The position numbers and the translations under genes are program-made. The notes under the pieces were generated by a model that saw nothing but the letters and a program-made list of their open reading frames with translations, made no database searches and was not told the DNA's origin. A stretch of DNA of 64,000 nt from Actinomarinicola tropica. GTDB taxonomy: Bacteria; Actinomycetota; Acidimicrobiia; Acidimicrobiales; SKKL01. Below, piece by piece: positions 35,060-45,527 of the stretch; positions within the stretch are counted from its first letter, which is position 1; each line of letters begins with the position of its first letter. The DNA lies in the NCBI RefSeq assembly GCF_009650215.1, contig NZ_CP045851.1, forward strand, positions 3,499,001 to 3,563,000, read 5' to 3'.

Positions 35060-35135
35060 GGTCGAGTAGCTCAGTTGGCAGAGCGTCCGCCTGAAAAGCG
35101 GAAGGTCACCGGATCGACGCCGGTCTCGACCACCA
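35060..35135 (+). tRNA. tRNA-Phe (anticodon GAA), integration site of the mobile element
   Basis: A 76-base cloverleaf including the encoded CCA. Acceptor GGTCGAG pairs with CTCGACC, anticodon loop CTGAAAA presents GAA, and the T arm is ACCGG ATCGACG CCGGT. From the anticodon loop to just past the CCA the sequence is repeated exactly at 45479-45527, so the 3' half of this gene was supplied by the integrated element. Confidence 0.96.
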
Positions 35136-35139
35136 GACA
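35091..35139 (+). repeat. attL: 49-bp direct repeat overlapping the 3' part of tRNA-Phe
   Basis: The 49 bases from CTGAAAAGCGGAAGG to CACCAGACA are identical to 45479-45527. Flanking bases differ on both sides (CGTCCGC before and AGAGCCC after here; CACGAA and GCGAGGC at the other copy), which sets the borders. This is the typical product of integrase-mediated insertion into a tRNA gene. Confidence 0.93.
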
Positions 35140-35391: not shown

Positions 35392-36267
35392 TCATGCTGC
35401 GACGTGAGCCTCGGCGGGTGTGAAGGCGAGCTCGAACTCGACGGGGGTGAGTTTGCCGAGAGCACGTTGTCGGCGTCGACGGTTGTAGCGATGCTCGATC
35501 CAGAACGAGATGGCGTAGGCGAGCTCGCCGCGGGTCCGCCAGCGGCGCTGATCGAAAACGTTGCGCTGCAAGAGCGCGAAGAACGACTCCATGGCCGCGT
35601 TGTCCCCGGCCGAGGCGACGCGACCCATCGACCCGGTGAGCCCCGTCGCGTTGAGCACGGCGCGGAATGCTCGAGATCGGAACTGACCGCCGCGGTCGGA
35701 GTGAACCACGACGGTCTGGGTGGGTTCGCGTCGGGCGATCGCGGTCTTCAACGCGCCGGTCGCGAGCTGGGCGGTCATGCGGTCGCCGATGGCGTAGCCG
35801 ACGATCCGGTTGGAGAACACGTCTTTGATCGCGCAGCAGTAGAGCTTGCCCTCGACGGTGGGGTGCTCGGTGATGTCGGTCAACCAGACCTGGTCGGGTC
35901 GCTCAGCGGTGAAGTTCCGCTGCACGAGATCGTCGTGCACGGCCGGGCCGGGGCGCTTGGCGGACCGGCCCTTGCGCACGGTGGTCGACCACAGGCGCTG
36001 CTCACGGCACAGCCGCCACACCCGCCGCTCACCGACCCGATGTCCGGCGTGTTCGAGCTCATCGGCGAGGAACCGATACCCGAACGTCGGGTCCTCGGCG
36101 TGGAGATCGACAAGCGCGTTGATGAGGTGGGCGTCGTCGAGGTCGCGGTCCGAGCACGGCCGGGAACGCCACTTGTAGAACGCCTGGGCCGAAAAGCCGA
36201 GCACCCCGCAGGTCAACCGCACCGGGATCCCCTCGGCGGCCAGTTCTTGGACCAGCGGGTAGCTCAT
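35392..36267 (-). CDS. IS3-family transposase OrfB (DDE integrase)
   Basis: A 291-residue transposase. It has an HTH_21-like region (NALVDLHAEDPTFGYRFLADEL) and the catalytic triad in VWLTDITEH (D), VVHSDRGGQF (D) and DNAAMESFFALL (E). The closing HRYNRRRRQRALGKLTPVEFE is the usual IS3 end. Its start overlaps the stop of orfA by four bases. All catalytic residues are present, so it appears functional, although the element's right end is interrupted. Confidence 0.95.
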   Translation of the reverse strand: MSYPLVQELAAEGIPVRLTCGVLGFSAQAFYKWRSRPCSDRDLDDAHLINALVDLHAEDPTFGYRFLADELEHAGHRVGERRVWRLCREQRLWSTTVRKGRSAKRPGPAVHDDLVQRNFTAERPDQVWLTDITEHPTVEGKLYCCAIKDVFSNRIVGYAIGDRMTAQLATGALKTAIARREPTQTVVVHSDRGGQFRSRAFRAVLNATGLTGSMGRVASAGDNAAMESFFALLQRNVFDQRRWRTRGELAYAISFWIEHRYNRRRRQRALGKLTPVEFELAFTPAEAHVAA

Positions 36268-36548
36268 TTTGGGAGCTGGTCCTTGGCGAAGTACGCCGCC
36301 GCACGGCGCAGGATCTCGTTCTCCATCTCCAGCCGGCGTTTCTCGCGGCGCAGCTGCACCAGCTCGGACTGCTCCGCGGTCGTGAGACCGTCGCGGACGC
36401 CGTCGTCGACGTCGGCCTGGCGCATCCAGCGCCGCACCGACTCGACCGAGATGTCGAAATCGGCCGCGACCTCGTTCAGGGTCAGATCACCCCGGCGCGC
36501 GACGCGCACCACGTCACGCTTGAACTCGGGAGGGAACTTCTTGGGCAT
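36264..36548 (-). CDS. IS3-family transposase OrfA
   Basis: A 94-residue protein with a helix-turn-helix (LTLNEVAADFDISVESVRRWM) and a C-terminal leucine-zipper-like helix (LVQLRREKRRLEMENEILRR), ending AAAYFAKDQLPK, the standard OrfA end. It directs OrfAB binding to the IS ends. Confidence 0.95.
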   Translation of the reverse strand: MPKKFPPEFKRDVVRVARRGDLTLNEVAADFDISVESVRRWMRQADVDDGVRDGLTTAEQSELVQLRREKRRLEMENEILRRAAAYFAKDQLPK

Positions 36549-36601
36549 CGGAACATCCTTCCCGCCCGACCACGCCGGGCGAAAGAGATGTCAACCAAAC
36601 C

Positions 36602-38008
36602 GGCGCTTCGCGTTTCAGCGGGGAGTGACGGTGGCGAGTAGCGCCCAGTTGGGGCGGCCGGCGTAGAGCAGGGCGCGGACGCGGTAGTGGGCGAAGCGGC
36701 GGAACCCGAAGGCCACCCGCTTGACCCTCTTGATGAGGTTGTTGATCGCCTCGGTCGGCCCGTTGGACACGCGAGCCCGGTGCCAGGCGGCGATCTGGTG
36801 GCGCCACTTGGTGATGGTGCGGCCGAGCTGGCGGACCTCGGGCGGGCAGGACTCGTCTTGGAGGTCGTGGCCGAGCCGATCGATGAACTCGGCAGCGACG
36901 GTGGGGTCGTCGATGTCGTAGATGCCGCGCACGGTCTCCTTGGCGTGCCACGCGGTGCGGACCTCGCCTCGGGGGTCACCGGCGTCGAGCAGTCCCAACA
37001 GCTTCTCTCTGCCCTTGTCGTCGAGGCGTTCGTCGGCTCGGGTCAACAGCCGCCTGGATCGGTAGAGCGGGTCGTCCTTGCGGCCCCGATGCCCCAGGGT
37101 GTCCTGCTGGACGCGGCGGCGGACCTCGTCGAGGCGCTGGTTGGCGAGCTTGATGAGATGGAACGGGTCGGCGACCTGGCCGGCGTCGGGCAGCATCGTG
37201 TCGAACGCGAGGCGCCACGGCCCCGACAGGTCCAGCACCGCCCAGGCGATCGCGTCACGCCATGTGACGGGCATGGCCGCCAACCACGCGCACAGCCCCG
37301 CCGAGGAGCGCCCTTCGATCACGTCGAGCAGCTGGCCCGAGGTGACATCGGTGATCGAGGTCGACCACGCCTGGGTCCGCCATCGACCCAGCCGGGCGAA
37401 CAGCACCTCATCGACCCCGAGCGCCGCCACCGCGCCGACCCGTGTCTGGTCGGCGTCGAGCAGCGCGGTCCCGTAGGCGATCACGGCGTCGTTGATCGCG
37501 TGCCAGTCCGCGCCGAGCTCAGCCGCGACATCGGACACGGCCCGGCCGTTGCGGCCGACCTGGCGGGTCGCCCACCGCCCAGCCCGGTCGGTCACCGACA
37601 ACCGCGGCGCGGCGATCCGCGGGTCCTCATGGGTCCACGACCCCTGCCGGCACCACCGCCTCGGACAGCAGAACCGGTGCTTGCGCCACCGCAACGTCAC
37701 CGGGCGGCCGAAGCAGGTGAGATCGACCAGCTCGACCACCGGCCGGTCCTTGACCCACGCCCGCTCCCCGCAGTTCGGACAGACCGGCGCGTCCACGATC
37801 GACTCGACGGTGATCTCGAGCCGGCCGACCAGCGGCTCGACCACCTCGAGGACCTTCACAGCGCCAAGACCGACAAGAAGCTCGCACGCGCGCGTAGCGT
37901 TGAACACAGCAGGGGCACCTCGGACTCGACGACGTCAGACATCGCCAAGTTCGCAGGGCCCCTGCTACGCGTCAGGGACCCTCACACCCCGCTCATCCGC
38001 GAAGCGCC
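36602..38008 (-). mobile_element. ISL3-family insertion sequence
   Basis: Inverted ends of 27 bases: left begins GGCGCTTCGCG and runs to GGGGAGTGA (36602-36628); the right end read inward begins GGCGCTTCGCG and runs to GGGGTGTGA (38008-37982). It is flanked by ACCAAACC (36594-36601) and CCCAAACC (38009-38016), a 7/8 match consistent with the 8-bp duplication made by ISL3 elements. Length 1407 bp, one transposase gene. Confidence 0.9.
36615..37907 (-). CDS. ISL3-family transposase
   Basis: A 430-residue transposase starting at GTG 37907. The N-terminal zinc ribbon has CPNCG and a CCPRRWC pair, followed by the HTH and the DDE domain: LGVDEVLFAR (D), VLDLSGPWRLAFDTMLPDAGQVADPFHLIKLAN (D) and SNGPTEAINNLIKRVKRVAFGFRRF (E). 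Complete and probably active. Confidence 0.93.
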   Translation of the reverse strand: MFNATRACELLVGLGAVKVLEVVEPLVGRLEITVESIVDAPVCPNCGERAWVKDRPVVELVDLTCFGRPVTLRWRKHRFCCPRRWCRQGSWTHEDPRIAAPRLSVTDRAGRWATRQVGRNGRAVSDVAAELGADWHAINDAVIAYGTALLDADQTRVGAVAALGVDEVLFARLGRWRTQAWSTSITDVTSGQLLDVIEGRSSAGLCAWLAAMPVTWRDAIAWAVLDLSGPWRLAFDTMLPDAGQVADPFHLIKLANQRLDEVRRRVQQDTLGHRGRKDDPLYRSRRLLTRADERLDDKGREKLLGLLDAGDPRGEVRTAWHAKETVRGIYDIDDPTVAAEFIDRLGHDLQDESCPPEVRQLGRTITKWRHQIAAWHRARVSNGPTEAINNLIKRVKRVAFGFRRFAHYRVRALLYAGRPNWALLATVTPR

Positions 38009-38463: not shown

Positions 38464-38900
38464 GTGGACACCCGATTCTGGCGTGAGGCCAGAGGAAGGA
38501 GTGCCCTGGATGGGGCGTCCGTCGAAGTACCCGCCGGAGTTCCGGCGCGAAGCGGTCGAGTTGGTGAGGACCAGTGATCGGCCGAGGGTGGAGATCGCCC
38601 GGTCGGTTGGGGATCAGCGACTCGACCCTGGCGAACTGGATGGCCGCGGAGCGCGATCGCGAGCGTCGCGGGGCGGATCCTGATGCGTTGTCGGAGTCCG
38701 AGCGCGAGGAGCCGGCCCGGCTGCGCAAGGAGAACATCGAGCTGCGCACCGATCGAGAGATCCTGCGCAAGGCAGCCGCCTATTTCGCCAAGGAGACGAC
38801 ACGGTGAGCCGCTTCCGTTTCGTCGATGACCACCGGGACCTCTATGAGGTGAAGCGGCTCTGTGCTCTGGTCGAAGTGTCGCGGTCGGTGGAGTTCGGTC
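38464..38900 (+). pseudogene. IS3-family remnant: frameshifted orfA and truncated orfB
   Basis: OrfA starts at ATG 38510 (MGRPSKYPPEFRREAVELV) and shifts frame in the GGGG run at 38609-38612; the correct text resumes as GISDSTLANWMAAERDRERRG and ends FAKETTR at 38807. OrfB begins at GTG 38804 (VSRFRFVDDHRDLYEVKRLC) and breaks off after about 30 residues near 38895. The left end CCTGAGCGTGGACACCC resembles IS3 termini. A dead copy, different from the intact IS3 at 35.4 kb. Confidence 0.85.
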
Positions 38901-39560: not shown

Positions 39561-40071
39561 CCGACCTTTCCCGGGTGGCGGGGCGGGACAGTAGCGGGCG
39601 TGGCGGAACGCTAGCCATGATGCCTGCCAGACGGGGAGAGGATCAGCGACGGCGGAGGACCGGGCCGACGAGCGGGTCAGCCTGAGGTCGTGGCGTCCGC
39701 ACACTCCGAGCTGGACGAGGCCAGGGCCGCGGCGTTCGAGGTGTCCACCGAAGCGGGCCACGGTCACTGCGCGGCAGCAGCTGAGTTCGTCAGGTGATTC
39801 AGCGACGGTGATCGTGGCGGTTGGGCTTTCGGCTGCGCGCCGCTCTGCTGCGTGGAACACATACGGAACCAACCGCCCGGCGACGGCGTCAACGCCGTTC
39901 TCCTGTCGCTCACAACCCAACCCTTGAGACGGCACACCGAAATCGCGGCCTCCGGATTCATCTTCGGAAGATCTGGCCCGCTCGTCGGCCTAGTGAAGGC
40001 ATGGAGCGACAGACGAGTGCATTGGGGCGACCACGACCCATTGCACGACGCGGACGGCGGTGGGTGGGGTG
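39561..40071. other. 511-bp stretch upstream of the relaxase, no supported gene
   Basis: No frame here shows convincing coding character. Being directly 5' of a MobF relaxase gene it is the natural place for oriT, but I see no clear inverted-repeat pair that would identify a nick site. Confidence 0.3.
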
Positions 40072-42816
40072 ATGCGGGTGACGACGTTGAAGGCGTCGAC
40101 CGCAGCTGGACTGGGCGGACTGCTCGCGTACTACGCGGGTCTCGCCGAGGACCGCCAACGACCGGGGCTGGGTCGCGGCCCGGTGGACTACTACCTCGAC
40201 CCGAACGAACCGCCGGGGCGGTGGGGAGGCGGAGGACTCGCCGGGCTGGGTGTGTCGGGTGAGGTGACCGGCGAGCAGCTCCGGGCGATCCTCGAGGGCT
40301 ACCACCCTGTGACGAACGAGCAGCTGGGTCGGGCCTTCGGTGACTCGTCGGCACGTGGGTTCGATGCGACGTTCTCGGCGCCGAAGTCGGTGTCCGCGCT
40401 GTGGGCGTTGTCGCCGGACCCGTGGATCCGCGCCGAGGTCCTCGCCGCCCACGACGCCGCAGTCGACGCCGCGCTCGGCTGGTTCGAACGACACGGCGCG
40501 GTGACCCGCCGCGGCCGCGACGGTGTCCTCCAGGTCGATACCCGAGGGATCGCGGTGGCGACCTTCCGCCAACACACGTCCCGCGCGATGGATCCCCAGC
40601 TGCACACCCACGCCGTGATCGTCGCCAAGGTGCAGGACCCCGCCGGGAAGTGGTTGTCGCTCGATGCGCGGTTCTTGAAGTACCAGCAGCGCACCATCGG
40701 CTGGATCTACGACGCCGCCCTGCGCGCCGAGCTCACCCGCCGGCTCGCCATCGGATGGGAACCCACCGCCGACGGCCCGTCGGACATGACCTGTGTCCCC
40801 GCGTCGGTGCGCGACCTGTTGTCGCAACGTTCCGGGCAGGTCGCCGACAAGCTCGACGAGCTGATCCGCCGCTGGTCAACCGAACACGACGGCGCCGATC
40901 CCGACCCGCGGACCATCGCGACCCTCGAGCGAACAGCTGCCGTGGCCTCTCGGCCGGCCAAGGCAAACGGCACGGACGCCGCAGCACTGCACGACACCTG
41001 GCGGCACCAGGCCCGCACGGTCGGGTTCGACCCCGACCAGCTCAGGTTCGATCTGCTTCCCGGACCCGAACCCGCCCGCCGGCTCTCCGACGACCAGCTC
41101 GTGGACGAGGCGCTGCGGCGAGTCGTCGACGAACAATCGACCTGGCTCGGAGCTGACGTCGCCCGCCATCTCTCCCTAATCATCCCGCCGGACGGTGGGC
41201 GCGCCGCCGATGTGACAGGACGCATCGACGCCCTCGCCGCACGAGCCATGGACCGCTGTGTCGAGCTCGGACCGGACCGCACGCGAGGTCCTCGAAGGAA
41301 GGATGGTCGCGCGGTCCGGGAGCACGTCACGGATCGCCGGCTCACCACCACCGACGTGCTCGACCAGGAAACCCGTCTCCAGCAGTGGGCCACCCACGGC
41401 ACCGGCCACGTCCCATCAGCTCCGGGCCTTGACGCTCAGGAACGCGCTGCTGCTGCGATCGCCGGCGACGACCGCCTGGTCCTCGTCGTCGGCCCGGCCG
41501 GGGCAGGCAAGACAAGCGCCACCGCCTACGCCGTCCGGCGACTTCGAGCAGAGGGTCGACCGGTGGTCGGCCTCGCTCCATCGGGCAAGGCCGCCGACGT
41601 TCTCCGCACGGAGGCCGGCTGCCCGACCGACACCCTCGCCGGGTTCCACACCCGCCACTCGCACGGTCAGCCATCGGTGTGGCCGACGGGCACGACGGTG
41701 ATCGTCGACGAAGCCGGCATGGCCCGCACCGACGACCTCGCACAACTCGTCGACCTCGCCGAGCGCCACCGCTGGCGGCTCGTTGCCGTCGGCGATCCCG
41801 CCCAACTGCCTGCGGTGGGTCGCGGTGGCGTGTTCGCCCACTGGTGCAACACCCTCCCGCACCACAGTCTCGACACACCACGCCGGTTCACCGAGGAGTG
41901 GGAGGCCGACGCCAGCCTCGCCCTCCGCGACGGCGACCCCAGGGCCGCCGAGGCCTACGCCGCCCACCGGCGGCTCGACACGATCCATCCCGCCCTGGTG
42001 GCAGCGGCCGTGGCGGACGTCCACCAGGCACAGGTGAATCGAGGCCGGACCGTCGCCGTCACGACCAACACCGCCGACATGGCCCGCGCCCTCAACACCG
42101 AGATCCAGCGGCGACTCGACCGCCACGACCCCCATCGACACCGCAGCGCCCGGCGGACACTCGCGGACGGCACCTGCGTCGTCGTCGGCGACACCGTCGC
42201 GACAAGGCGCAACGACCCGGCACTGCTGACCGACCGCGGCGAGCAGGTCCGGAACCGCCACACCTGGACCGTCACAGCCCTCACTGCCGACGGGGCGCTC
42301 ACCGTCGCGCATCCGGACCGCGGCACGGTCACCCTTCCCGCCGGCTACGTCGAAGGTCACGTCGAGCTCGGATGGGCCGTCACCGGCTACGGCAACCAAG
42401 GCGACACCGTCGACATCGGCCTCGCCGTCCTCGAACCCGGCACCACCCGCAACCACGCCTACGTCGCTCTCACCCGCGGCCGACACGACAACAGCGCCTG
42501 GATCACCGACCCCACCGGAACCCTCGACCCCGCCGATGCCCTCACCACCATGATCGAACGCACACCCCACGGCGACTCAGCCCTCGCCCTCCGTCGACAG
42601 CTCCACCGAGCCGCCAGACGAGAAGCACCCGAGCTCGAGGACGTTCTCCTCGAGCGGACGCCGAGCCGTCAAGACCAACGGACTCCGACGGCCGCGGCTC
42701 CGGACGTCACAGGGCAGCTCGACGAGCGCGTCGCCGCGATGCGGGCTCGACTCGACCAGCTGCAGGGCGAAGCTCAGCGAGAAACACCGGGCCTCGACCG
42801 CGGGCTCAGGAGGTGA
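40072..42816 (+). CDS. MobF-type conjugative relaxase with RecD-like helicase (TrwC/TraA family)
   Basis: A 914-residue protein. The N-terminal relaxase domain has a GYHP region, FDATFSAPKSVSALWAL and the metal-binding His motif QLHTHAVIVAKV (about residues 175-187). The helicase part has Walker A VVGPAGAGKTSAT (about residue 474), Walker B TVIVDEAGM, GDPAQLPAVG and the late motif GYGNQGDTVD with YVALTRGR. It nicks oriT and unwinds DNA for transfer. ATG 40072 is chosen over a GTG 12 bases upstream because it starts RVTTLKAST, as in the family. Its end overlaps the convergent integrase gene by 11 bases. Confidence 0.93.
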   Translation: MRVTTLKASTAAGLGGLLAYYAGLAEDRQRPGLGRGPVDYYLDPNEPPGRWGGGGLAGLGVSGEVTGEQLRAILEGYHPVTNEQLGRAFGDSSARGFDATFSAPKSVSALWALSPDPWIRAEVLAAHDAAVDAALGWFERHGAVTRRGRDGVLQVDTRGIAVATFRQHTSRAMDPQLHTHAVIVAKVQDPAGKWLSLDARFLKYQQRTIGWIYDAALRAELTRRLAIGWEPTADGPSDMTCVPASVRDLLSQRSGQVADKLDELIRRWSTEHDGADPDPRTIATLERTAAVASRPAKANGTDAAALHDTWRHQARTVGFDPDQLRFDLLPGPEPARRLSDDQLVDEALRRVVDEQSTWLGADVARHLSLIIPPDGGRAADVTGRIDALAARAMDRCVELGPDRTRGPRRKDGRAVREHVTDRRLTTTDVLDQETRLQQWATHGTGHVPSAPGLDAQERAAAAIAGDDRLVLVVGPAGAGKTSATAYAVRRLRAEGRPVVGLAPSGKAADVLRTEAGCPTDTLAGFHTRHSHGQPSVWPTGTTVIVDEAGMARTDDLAQLVDLAERHRWRLVAVGDPAQLPAVGRGGVFAHWCNTLPHHSLDTPRRFTEEWEADASLALRDGDPRAAEAYAAHRRLDTIHPALVAAAVADVHQAQVNRGRTVAVTTNTADMARALNTEIQRRLDRHDPHRHRSARRTLADGTCVVVGDTVATRRNDPALLTDRGEQVRNRHTWTVTALTADGALTVAHPDRGTVTLPAGYVEGHVELGWAVTGYGNQGDTVDIGLAVLEPGTTRNHAYVALTRGRHDNSAWITDPTGTLDPADALTTMIERTPHGDSALALRRQLHRAARREAPELEDVLLERTPSRQDQRTPTAAAPDVTGQLDERVAAMRARLDQLQGEAQRETPGLDRGLRR

Positions 42817-43957
42817 GCCCGTCACGACCGCCTTCGTAGACGGCGTCGAGCTGATTCGTCAGGCGTGCCGAGAGCGACGGGTACAGATGGCCGTAGCGAT
42901 CGGCTGTCACCGCGATCGTCGAGTGGCCGAGACGCTCCTTGACGACGAGGAGGTGCGCTCCCTGGGCGATCATCAGCGCCGCCGCCGTGTGGCGGAGGTC
43001 GTGGAAGCGGGTCCGCTGCTCGAGCCCGGCCCGTCCGACGGCCGGCTTGAAGAAGCGACGGTAGAAGTTCGTGTGTCGCAACGAGCCGCCGGATGGGGAC
43101 GTGAAGAACGGCGCAGCCGGGTCCGATGGACGACTCGCTCGATGGGCGGCCATCTCGTCGGCGAGCGCCGCCGGCAGATCGACACGGCGACGGCTGTAGG
43201 TCTTCGGCGGCCCGTAGACCAACTGTCCATGGACCTCCTCCACCGACTCGGCCACCTCCACCCATGAGCCGTCGGACGCGACTCGGCCGACTCGCAGTGC
43301 CGCGACCTCACCCGCGCGCAGTCCGCTGAAGGCAGCGAAGCGGACGAGCAAGCCGTATGAGGGCCAGTGCTGGAGCGGGTGGCTCGCGGGCCGCGGTGGA
43401 TTCGCGACTGCGTCGGCGAGAGCGAAGACCTGCTCGACGGTGAGGAACACCATCTCCGTCCGCGAGCCTCGTGGCACCCTCAGTCCGTCGGCGGGGTTGC
43501 GATGGATCGCGTCCTCCCGCAACGCCTCCTGCAACACGAGACGCAAGATCTTGCGGGCCTCGCCGATCGTGCCCGCCGCGAGTCCCTTGGACCTCAGGTC
43601 ATCGACGAACGACCTGCAGTCCCGGTAGGTGATCGATCCGATGGGCCGATCCTCGAACACCGGCATCACGTGGTTGCGCAGGCACGACTCGTAGCTGACC
43701 TCGGTCTTGGGCTTCACGTGGAGCCCGGTGAGCCACCCTGCCGCCCATTCGCCGAACGGTCGTTGGCTCAGCTCGCGATCCAGGAGGACTCCACGCGAGC
43801 GGTCCGTCTCGACCTTGGCGAGCCAGAGTCCGGCGTCGGCCTTCGTCGTGAACGTCGACGGCCCGTTCACGCGCCGACCCGTGAACTCGTCGATGTAGGA
43901 GGCGTGCCACCTCCCCGACGGAAGCTTGCGAATGCTTCCGAACCCTCTGCGCGCCAC
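42806..43957 (-). CDS. int: Tyrosine site-specific integrase
   Basis: A 383-residue phage-type integrase. N-terminal arm-binding region begins GFGSIRKLPSGRWHASYID, a SAM-like core-binding domain follows, and the catalytic residues are Arg in FSGLRAGEVAALR, His-x-x-Arg in FHDLRHTAAALMI, His in GHSTIAVTADRYGH and Tyr in that last segment. It recombines the element with the tRNA-Phe attB (inference from the att repeats). ATG 43957. Confidence 0.95.
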   Translation of the reverse strand: MARRGFGSIRKLPSGRWHASYIDEFTGRRVNGPSTFTTKADAGLWLAKVETDRSRGVLLDRELSQRPFGEWAAGWLTGLHVKPKTEVSYESCLRNHVMPVFEDRPIGSITYRDCRSFVDDLRSKGLAAGTIGEARKILRLVLQEALREDAIHRNPADGLRVPRGSRTEMVFLTVEQVFALADAVANPPRPASHPLQHWPSYGLLVRFAAFSGLRAGEVAALRVGRVASDGSWVEVAESVEEVHGQLVYGPPKTYSRRRVDLPAALADEMAAHRASRPSDPAAPFFTSPSGGSLRHTNFYRRFFKPAVGRAGLEQRTRFHDLRHTAAALMIAQGAHLLVVKERLGHSTIAVTADRYGHLYPSLSARLTNQLDAVYEGGRDGLTS

Positions 43958-44041
43958 GACCAGACCTCCGACTCGGCGGATGAATGGCCGGCCAGGGCGC
44001 GGGCCGGCGACGCAGACCCTCAGGCTACGACGGGCGAGGGT

Positions 44042-44245
44042 TCAGGCCGACCAACTTCCTCGGCGCGCCGACTCGAGCCACCGGTCGATCTCGTCGGGAT
44101 CGAAGCGAAGGAGGTGGCCCCACTTCAGGAAGGGGATCCGCCGCTCCGCGACGAGCCGGCGGATGTGCCGCTCGTTCACGCCGAGTCGCTCGGCGACAGC
44201 GGGAAGGTCGATCAGTGCATGGTGGGGTTCGGGTCGGGTCGTCAC
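44042..44245 (-). CDS. xis: Excisionase-like helix-turn-helix protein
   Basis: A 67-residue MerR-like HTH_17 protein: LIDLPAVAERLGVNERHIRRLVAERRIPFLKWGHLLRFDPDEIDRWL in sequence order. GTG 44245 has a GGAGG six bases upstream, which decides the start among several. It stands 84 bases upstream of int on the same strand, the usual xis-int order. Confidence 0.88.
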   Translation of the reverse strand: MTTRPEPHHALIDLPAVAERLGVNERHIRRLVAERRIPFLKWGHLLRFDPDEIDRWLESARRGSWSA

Positions 44246-44356
44246 GATGGTCCTCCAGTCGCCAGCGTTCACCCCACTAGGCCGCCGACGACCGCAGAAC
44301 TTCCCCACAAACAGCGGAGAAGCGCGCCTCAGTCCCACATCGGCCACGATGAGAGC

Positions 44357-45061
44357 GTGGCGGAACCCTCGAAGTCCCAAGTGAACAAGGCCGGACGGGT
44401 ACTACGCCGATGGGCCAGGGGAGAGCTCATGAGCGTCTCCCCGGAAGAGCACGAGCGCGCTCTTGCTGTCCTACTCGCCCACCGTGCCGCCCATCGGCTG
44501 CCCCTAACCAAGGCAACAATGGGCTTGCGCTCAGTCGTGAAGACCGAGCATTGCGTGGTGGAGGTCTCCCAGAGATTGAAGCGCGTACCCACGATCATCG
44601 AGAAGCTCACCGTCCGAGAGCCGACGATGCAGCTCGCCAACATGCAGGACATTGGTGGGTGCCGCGCCGTCCTCGACTCCATCGACGAGGTACGCCGCGT
44701 CCAGCGCCGCCTCTCGAAGAACCGCCCGCCGCTGCGAGTGTCCGACTACATCTCTGAGTCCCGGCGGTCCGGTTACCGAGGGGTCCACGTCGTCGTTCAG
44801 TACGACGGCCGCCCCATCGAGGTGCAGCTCCGCACCCAGGTCATGCACGAATGGGCCATCACCGTCGAGCGGTTGGGGGGACGGCTCGGGGAGGACCTCA
44901 AGAGCGGGTACGGGCCTCCCGAGGTTCTAGACCTTCTCGGGGGCATCTCCGAGGTCATGGCCATCGAGGAGCAAGGGGGAGTCGTCCCCACCGAAGCGCT
45001 CACTAGACTGAGTTCCTTGCGCGAGGCAGCACTACCGTTCCTGGGAGGAGGCCACCGATGA
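44357..45061 (+). CDS. RelA/SpoT-domain protein (small alarmone synthetase-like)
   Basis: A 234-residue single-domain nucleotide pyrophosphokinase homolog. Synthetase residues match Rel: R and K in SQRLKRVPTIIEKL, Asp in DIGGCRAV, Tyr in SRRSGYRGVH and Glu in IEVQLRT. No HD hydrolase domain, TGS or ACT is present. GTG 44357 is preceded by CACGATGAGAGC, a possible leaderless start. It overlaps the next gene by four bases (ATGA). Such small synthetases in mobile elements include toxic ones that attack tRNA CCA ends or make (pp)pApp; whether this one makes an alarmone or modifies tRNA is open. Confidence 0.88.
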   Translation: MAEPSKSQVNKAGRVLRRWARGELMSVSPEEHERALAVLLAHRAAHRLPLTKATMGLRSVVKTEHCVVEVSQRLKRVPTIIEKLTVREPTMQLANMQDIGGCRAVLDSIDEVRRVQRRLSKNRPPLRVSDYISESRRSGYRGVHVVVQYDGRPIEVQLRTQVMHEWAITVERLGGRLGEDLKSGYGPPEVLDLLGGISEVMAIEEQGGVVPTEALTRLSSLREAALPFLGGGHR

Positions 45062-45309
45062 CCGATCGAATCCAGCATTTCCTGCTCGTGTTCGACCACC
45101 AGGCGGGCAGTCTGATCCAGACCCGGGAGTACGGCGAGGACGCCGACGCTGCCATTGCTGCGTACGCCGCGACCGAAGCCGAGTTCGGCGACCGCAAGGA
45201 CATCGAGGTTGTCCTCATCGGCTCGGACTCCTTCGAGACTGTCAAGCGGACCCACGCGAACTACTTCGACGGCTCCGTGTCGGTGTCGAAGTACCTCGCC
45301 GGCATCTGA
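45058..45309 (+). CDS. Small partner protein of the RelA/SpoT-domain gene
   Basis: An 83-residue soluble alpha/beta protein: IQHFLLVFDHQAGSLIQTRE, AAIAAYAATEAEFGDRKDIE, then VVLIGSDSFETVKRTHANYF. ATG 45058 overlaps the upstream stop, so the two are translationally coupled. I recall similar small proteins beside RelA/SpoT-domain genes in other actinobacteria but no assigned function. As the second gene of a coupled pair it may be an antitoxin or a cofactor (inference). Confidence 0.7.
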   Translation: MTDRIQHFLLVFDHQAGSLIQTREYGEDADAAIAAYAATEAEFGDRKDIEVVLIGSDSFETVKRTHANYFDGSVSVSKYLAGI

Positions 45310-45353
45310 TCCCACAGCGTCGACACCGTCGGCCCGGGCCTCCCGCCACGTGC

Positions 45354-45375
45354 GTGCAACATACGTGCAACATCG
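45354..45375 (+). repeat. Right copy of the 22-bp end repeat (possible integrase arm site)
   Basis: The sequence starts GTGCAACATACGTGCAACAT and ends CG; it differs at one base from 35207-35228 and is itself built of two GTGCAACAT-like units 11 bases apart. Confidence 0.6.
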
Positions 45376-45426
45376 GGCGGAGAACTGCGGTCGATCGCGG
45401 TCACTAGCGGTAAACGAAAACGACCG

Positions 45427-45460
45427 CTGACCTGCGACGACGCGAATCTCGCCAGGTCAG
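45427..45460 (+). other. Inverted repeat near the right end of the element
   Basis: CTGACCTGCGA (45427-45437) faces TCGCCAGGTCAG (45449-45460). The same CAGGTCAG core forms the hairpin at 35145-35175 at the other end. It could end the alarmone-synthetase transcript (no U-tract) or bind recombination proteins. Confidence 0.45.
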
Positions 45461-45478
45461 AGAATCGCCCGACACGAA

Positions 45479-45527
45479 CTGAAAAGCGGAAGGTCACCGG
45501 ATCGACGCCGGTCTCGACCACCAGACA
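45479..45527 (+). repeat. attR: 49-bp copy of the tRNA-Phe 3' part
   Basis: Identical to 35091-35139. No tRNA 5' half precedes it, so this is the displaced original 3' end and not a second tRNA gene. Confidence 0.93.

What the first reader, a model, noticed from the sequence alone, without database searches (positions are those of the whole stretch)
44357..45309. Small-alarmone-synthetase gene coupled to a small partner gene at the end of a mobile element
A single-domain RelA/SpoT homolog with all synthetase residues overlaps an 83-residue gene by ATGA and sits 170 bases from attR, the usual place for accessory defence or addiction genes. Known toxic small alarmone synthetases are neutralised by a neighbour protein. 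The partner is not a family I recognise as a known toxSAS antitoxin.
Basis: partly seen in the sequence, partly recalled or inferred. Interest (0 to 1): 0.72.

Follow-up and report, generated by a model that had tools for sequence, protein, structure and literature searches.

The report
Split CapRel toxin–antitoxin pair in element
Two overlapping genes at the end of a mobile DNA element encode an enzyme that most likely shuts down protein synthesis and a small protein that keeps it off; this is a further example of the known CapRel toxin–antitoxin and anti-phage family in its two-gene form, so it is useful to annotate but mostly ordinary.

Summary
In detail: a single-domain RelA/SpoT synthetase (44357-45061) overlaps an 83-aa gene (45058-45309) by ATGA, 169 nt before a 49-nt exact att duplicate of tRNA-Phe. 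The partner is not an unknown family. The PADLOC PDC-S33 and PHROG 4773 models each match the synthetase with their N-terminal part and the partner with their C-terminal part. The toxin's nearest solved structure, by sequence and by fold, is CapRelSJ46. The partner's profile aligns with the C-terminal antitoxin/sensor domain of fused CapRels (hhalign 96%, E 3.7e-9), and its model superposes on ATfaRel2. This is therefore a split (two-gene) CapRel:ATcapRel module; published work says that the pair is usually unfused in Actinobacteria. In about two dozen related loci the antitoxin lies directly behind the toxin; three lone antitoxins and no lone intact toxin of this subfamily were seen. A sister element at the same tRNA-Phe in a same-genus genome has exactly this cassette replaced by a BrnT-like/RHH pair. 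One feature I found no report of: the first Tyr of the YXXY neutralisation motif is His throughout the split clade and Tyr (once Phe) in the fused clade. Toxicity, tRNA pyrophosphorylation and phage defence are inferred, not shown here.

The parts
44357..45061 (+). CapRel-type toxic small alarmone synthetase (toxSYNTH), 234 aa; catalytic R73, R103, G-loop Y140
   Evidence: Pfam RelA_SpoT; PDC-S33 E 8e-57; PDB CapRelSJ46 E 4e-17; fold match TM 0.82 to 7ztb; alignments
45058..45309 (+). ATcapRel-type pseudo-zinc-finger antitoxin, 83 aa; neutralisation motif H66-A-N-Y69 in place of YXXY
   Evidence: PDC-S33 C-terminal part E 4e-8; hhalign against fused CapRel C-termini prob 96, E 3.7e-9; VIA match to ATfaRel2 8pu2, Z 5.1, rmsd 1.9 over 57 residues
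44042..44380 (-). excisionase-like HTH_17 protein, divergent from the pair
   Evidence: Pfam HTH_17 E 2e-9
42806..43957 (-). tyrosine integrase of the element
   Evidence: Pfam Phage_integrase E 3e-15
40060..42816 (+). TrwC/MobF-type relaxase-helicase of the element
   Evidence: Pfam TrwC E 8.5e-74 and AAA_30
35091..35139 (+). attL: 49 nt inside and just past tRNA-Phe(GAA) 35060-35135
45479..45527 (+). attR: exact 49-nt duplicate
44305..45352 (.). cassette that carries the pair: no DNA alignment to the sister element in G001, which aligns on both sides

Best explanation
The pair is a split (bicistronic) CapRel:ATcapRel type II toxin-antitoxin module carried as exchangeable cargo of an integrative, probably mobilisable element in tRNA-Phe. 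The toxin is most likely an ATP:tRNA pyrophosphokinase that modifies the 3'-CCA end and stops translation. The 83-aa pseudo-zinc-finger protein binds it and pushes a short motif (here H66-x-x-Y69) into the ATP donor site between R73 and R103. Release of the antitoxin, plausibly by binding of a phage protein as in fused CapRel, would free the toxin, giving abortive anti-phage defence and perhaps element maintenance. Shown here: the gene pair, homology of both halves to the two halves of CapRel, conserved catalytic residues, conserved linkage, and cassette replacement. Inferred: toxicity, substrate, neutralisation, trigger and benefit.
For: PDC-S33, a 349-position model, matches the toxin at 7-225 (E 8e-57) and the partner at 264-333 (E 4e-8); 17 of 17 partner homologues hit it; PHROG 4773 shows the same split. 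The best PDB sequence matches are CapRelSJ46 7ztb and 9erv, and the toxin model fits 7ztb with TM 0.82 against about 0.5-0.59 for RelP/RelQ. A profile of partner homologues made without any fused sequence hits the C-termini of fused plasmid CapRels (L042 4e-11, L040 4e-8, L046 2e-7), and profile-profile comparison with fused C-termini gives 96%, E 3.7e-9. The partner model superposes on ATfaRel2. The toxin lies directly upstream of the antitoxin in 5 of 5 genome-contig loci, 2 of 2 relatives, 5 of 5 phylum-sample genomes of this subfamily, and all 12 viral-contig antitoxin loci. A lone antitoxin with a broken toxin remnant is seen in G420. The cassette is swapped for another TA-like pair in the sister element. 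Published: CapRel is unfused in most Actinobacteria and is a tRNA-targeting, phage-triggered TA system (PMC9712102; PMC11782079).
Against: No experiment was done. The first residue of the neutralisation motif is His, not Tyr, and Y352A in CapRelSJ46 abolishes inhibition, so the exact inhibitory contact may differ. Foldseek alone gave no significant match for the 83-aa model, and the VIA Z of about 5 is in the range that unrelated folds can reach. A partner profile does not find SJ46 in the PDB by sequence; the link runs through intermediate fused CapRels.
Confidence: 0.9

Rival explanations
1. The synthetase is an ordinary (p)ppGpp-making small alarmone synthetase acting as an accessory stringent-response enzyme, and the small gene is a regulator of it.
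For: All synthetase catalytic residues are present, and the fold resembles RelP/RelQ.
Against: It groups with CapRel and away from the chromosomal SAS of other Actinobacteria; both halves match the CapRel/PDC-S33 model; the TM-score to CapRel is much higher than to RelP/RelQ.
Confidence: 0.04
2. A (pp)pApp-making toxSAS of FaRel/Tas1 type that depletes ATP.
For: It is a toxSAS with an adjacent antitoxin.
Against: The partner is a pZFD-type antitoxin that blocks the ATP donor site; published ppApp-type toxSAS are neutralised through the acceptor site by Tis1-like domains (PMC11782079). The nearest relative is CapRel.
Confidence: 0.04
3. A decayed or inactive remnant carried passively at the element end.
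For: Toxin remnants of this family occur elsewhere (L030).
Against: Both frames are intact, catalytic residues are conserved, and the third codon positions have the high G+C expected of coding sequence.
Confidence: 0.02

Closest known systems
Unfused CapRel:ATcapRel of Actinobacteria (M. terramassiliense, M. tuberculosis; cited in PMC9712102 and PMC11782079)
   Same: Two adjacent genes in Actinobacteria; homologous toxSYNTH and pZFD antitoxin.
   Different: Different lineage and host element; the sequences of those examples were not on hand, so identity was not measured.
CapRelSJ46 (fused, phage SJ46; 7ztb, 9erv)
   Same: Toxin 31% identical over 248 aligned positions with the same catalytic residues; the partner aligns with its C-terminal domain.
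   Different: Two proteins instead of one; no anchor helices in the 83-aa protein; HANY instead of YPNY; the phage trigger is unknown.
PhRel:ATphRel, Mycobacterium phage Phrann gp29:gp30
   Same: Split pair in the same order; gp30 also carries THxxYF.
   Different: The toxin is more distant, on a long branch of the tree.
FaRel2:ATfaRel2 (8pu1-8pu4)
   Same: Two-gene pair; the antitoxin fold superposes.
   Different: Distant sequence; circularly permuted antitoxin with YXXY (PMC11782079).

Membership tests
CapRel toxSAS toxin-antitoxin family | toxSYNTH domain closest to CapRel with ATP-coordinating Arg pair and G-loop Tyr | tested here: met
   R73, R103, Y140 invariant; best PDB sequence and fold match is CapRel; outside the chromosomal SAS group in the tree
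CapRel toxSAS toxin-antitoxin family | pseudo-zinc-finger antitoxin, fused or as adjacent gene | tested here: met
   fold support
CapRel toxSAS toxin-antitoxin family | YXXY neutralisation motif | tested here: inconclusive
   Position present and aligned, but it reads HXXY in this and all split relatives; gp30 of Phrann has the same
CapRel toxSAS toxin-antitoxin family | Toxic alone, neutralised by the antitoxin | not testable with these tools
   needs expression
CapRel toxSAS toxin-antitoxin family | Pyrophosphorylates tRNA 3'-CCA | not testable with these tools
   needs biochemistry
CapRel toxSAS toxin-antitoxin family | Activated by a phage protein | not testable with these tools
   needs phage assays
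FaRel/Tas1-type ppApp toxSAS | Tis1-like or hydrolase antitoxin | tested here: not met
   The partner is of pZFD type (sequence); no other candidate gene between the excisionase gene and attR

The most novel reading that the evidence does not exclude
The split CapRel clade uses a His in place of the first Tyr of the neutralisation motif, as a clade-wide difference from the fused clade; this could alter how the separate antitoxin is held and released, for example a different dissociation threshold or sensing chemistry suited to an antitoxin acting in trans.
Probability: 0.15. Interest if true: 0.45.

Novelty: new member of a known kind. Interest (0 to 1): 0.27.

Why it matters
It places a probable CapRel module in a relatively unstudied actinobacterial lineage and shows it as swappable cargo at a tRNA-Phe element end, where a sister element carries another TA-like pair. 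It also points to a simple test: whether His at the first position of the motif marks antitoxins that act in trans.

Tried and rejected
An unknown antitoxin family was rejected: the partner has no Pfam hit, but PADLOC, PHROG and profile comparison place it. Foldseek of the 83-aa model alone was not significant, and the partner profile against PDB sequences gave only chance KRas matches. The VIA list also holds unrelated folds at similar Z (a designed protein at 5.2), so it is used only as support. A strict tie between the motif and gene fusion was considered and rejected: L042 is fused with HSHY, and L043 is a two-frame member of the fused clade with YPAF, so the motif follows the clade. Promoter and terminator scans gave nothing above chance. 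The papers by Jimmy 2020 and Kurata 2021, sought by DOI, are not held. The empty-site check in the same-genus genome gave an occupied site instead. A survey of more distant integrase relatives showed varied cargo, including TA-like and defence-like genes recognised by eye only; it was not tested further.

Full report
Observation. The reported genes are real. The synthetase frame is 44357-45061 (234 aa, GTG start), and the partner is 45058-45309 (83 aa); they overlap by ATGA. The synthetase matches Pfam RelA_SpoT well above its cut-off, and the residues equivalent to CapRelSJ46 R79, R116 and Y155 (here R73, R103, Y140) are invariant among 16 homologues. The element is bounded by a 49-nt exact duplicate, 35091-35139 within tRNA-Phe and 45479-45527. 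The partner ends 169 nt before attR.

What the partner is. Pfam has no family for it. PADLOC PDC-S33 (349 positions) matches the synthetase with its first two thirds (E 8e-57) and the partner with positions 264-333 (E 4e-8). PHROG 4773 does the same, though weakly for the partner. All 17 partner homologues hit PDC-S33. A profile made from split partners only hits the C-terminal ends of fused plasmid RelA/SpoT proteins (L042, L040, L046, L041), and a profile-profile comparison with eight fused CapRel C-termini gives 96% probability, E 3.7e-9, over 71 columns. The AlphaFold model (pLDDT 83.5, strand-strand-helix-strand-helix) gave no significant Foldseek match. On structural re-alignment the antitoxin ATfaRel2 (8pu2, Z 5.1, rmsd 1.9 A over 57 residues) and CapRel residues 281-362 (Z 4.3) rank near the top. 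These Z values are modest and serve as support only.

What the synthetase is. The nearest solved proteins are the CapRelSJ46 entries 7ztb and 9erv by sequence (E 4e-17) and by fold (TM 0.79-0.82 against about 0.5-0.59 for RelP/RelQ). In a 44-row tree it lies among split CapRel-like toxins, apart from the chromosomal SAS of other Actinobacteria. Deep forks are poorly resolved and the PhRel branch is long.

Linkage. The antitoxin lies directly downstream of the toxin in five genome-contig loci, two relatives, five further genomes of a 396-genome phylum sample and all twelve viral-contig antitoxin loci (two of these, L050 and L051, look the same). Spacing ranges from an overlap of 16 nt to a gap of 23 nt, and seven of 17 pairs overlap by 4 nt, the window's among them. 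Three lone antitoxins were found: in G420 a frame-broken toxin remnant precedes it, while G376 and G179 show no toxin in the flank held. No lone intact toxin of this subfamily was seen. The weaker toxin hits of the sample are fused CapRels, chromosomal SAS without an antitoxin, and one unplaced row (L020).

Setting. A same-genus genome (G001) carries a related element in the same tRNA-Phe with the same 49-nt att: integrase 86%, relaxase 70% and excisionase 71% identical. DNA aligns over window 39961-44304 and again over 45353-45527; the unaligned stretch 44305-45352 is the toxin-antitoxin cassette. In G001 that place holds another overlapping pair, an 86-aa protein weakly like BrnT (E 0.013, below the Pfam cut-off) and a ribbon-helix-helix protein (above cut-off). 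The slot is thus exchangeable, and both known occupants look like toxin-antitoxin pairs.

Mechanism. From PMC9712102 and PMC11782079: CapRel modifies tRNA, its pZFD blocks the ATP donor site through YXXY between two arginines, and in fused CapRel phage proteins bind the pZFD and release the toxin. PMC9712102 states that the pair is usually unfused in Actinobacteria. The window pair most likely works in this way with the antitoxin in trans; this is inferred.

Possible new point. At the place of CapRelSJ46 Y352 the split relatives all have His (THxxYF), including Phrann gp30. The ten members of the fused clade (support 96/95) have Tyr, or Phe once. Two exceptions to fusion state (L042 fused with His; L043 two-frame with Tyr) show that the motif follows the clade. 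Neither paper's held text mentions this, and one library search found nothing; the published alignment figure includes such sequences, so its authors may have seen it.

Verdict.

Noticed in passing
L069 (G001:C20:27500-37500): Sister element in the same tRNA-Phe with the same att and backbone but a BrnT-like/ribbon-helix-helix pair in the slot between excisionase and attR.
   Followed up: yes
window 35218, 45354, 45365; L069 653, 664, 8130, 8141: GTGCAACAT repeats just inside both element ends (3 found, 0.06 expected; four in the sister element), possibly integrase arm-type sites.
   Followed up: partly
window 35392-37907: IS3-type (rve) and ISL3-type transposase genes inside the element near attL; a further short IS3-like orfA remnant at 38483-38807 was recognised by eye.
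   Followed up: partly
L030 (G420) and L032 (G376): Lone ATcapRel-like genes: one behind a broken toxin remnant, one next to ParD/ParE-like frames.
   Followed up: partly
L086, L088, L089, L092: More distant integrase relatives seem to carry other TA-like or defence-like genes (DUF433/PIN-like, DUF4160/DUF2442-like, large helicase, type III R-M-like), judged by eye only.
   Followed up: no
L006 and L011: The toxin reading frame is interrupted by a frame change in both loci, either decay or a draft-assembly error.
   Followed up: no
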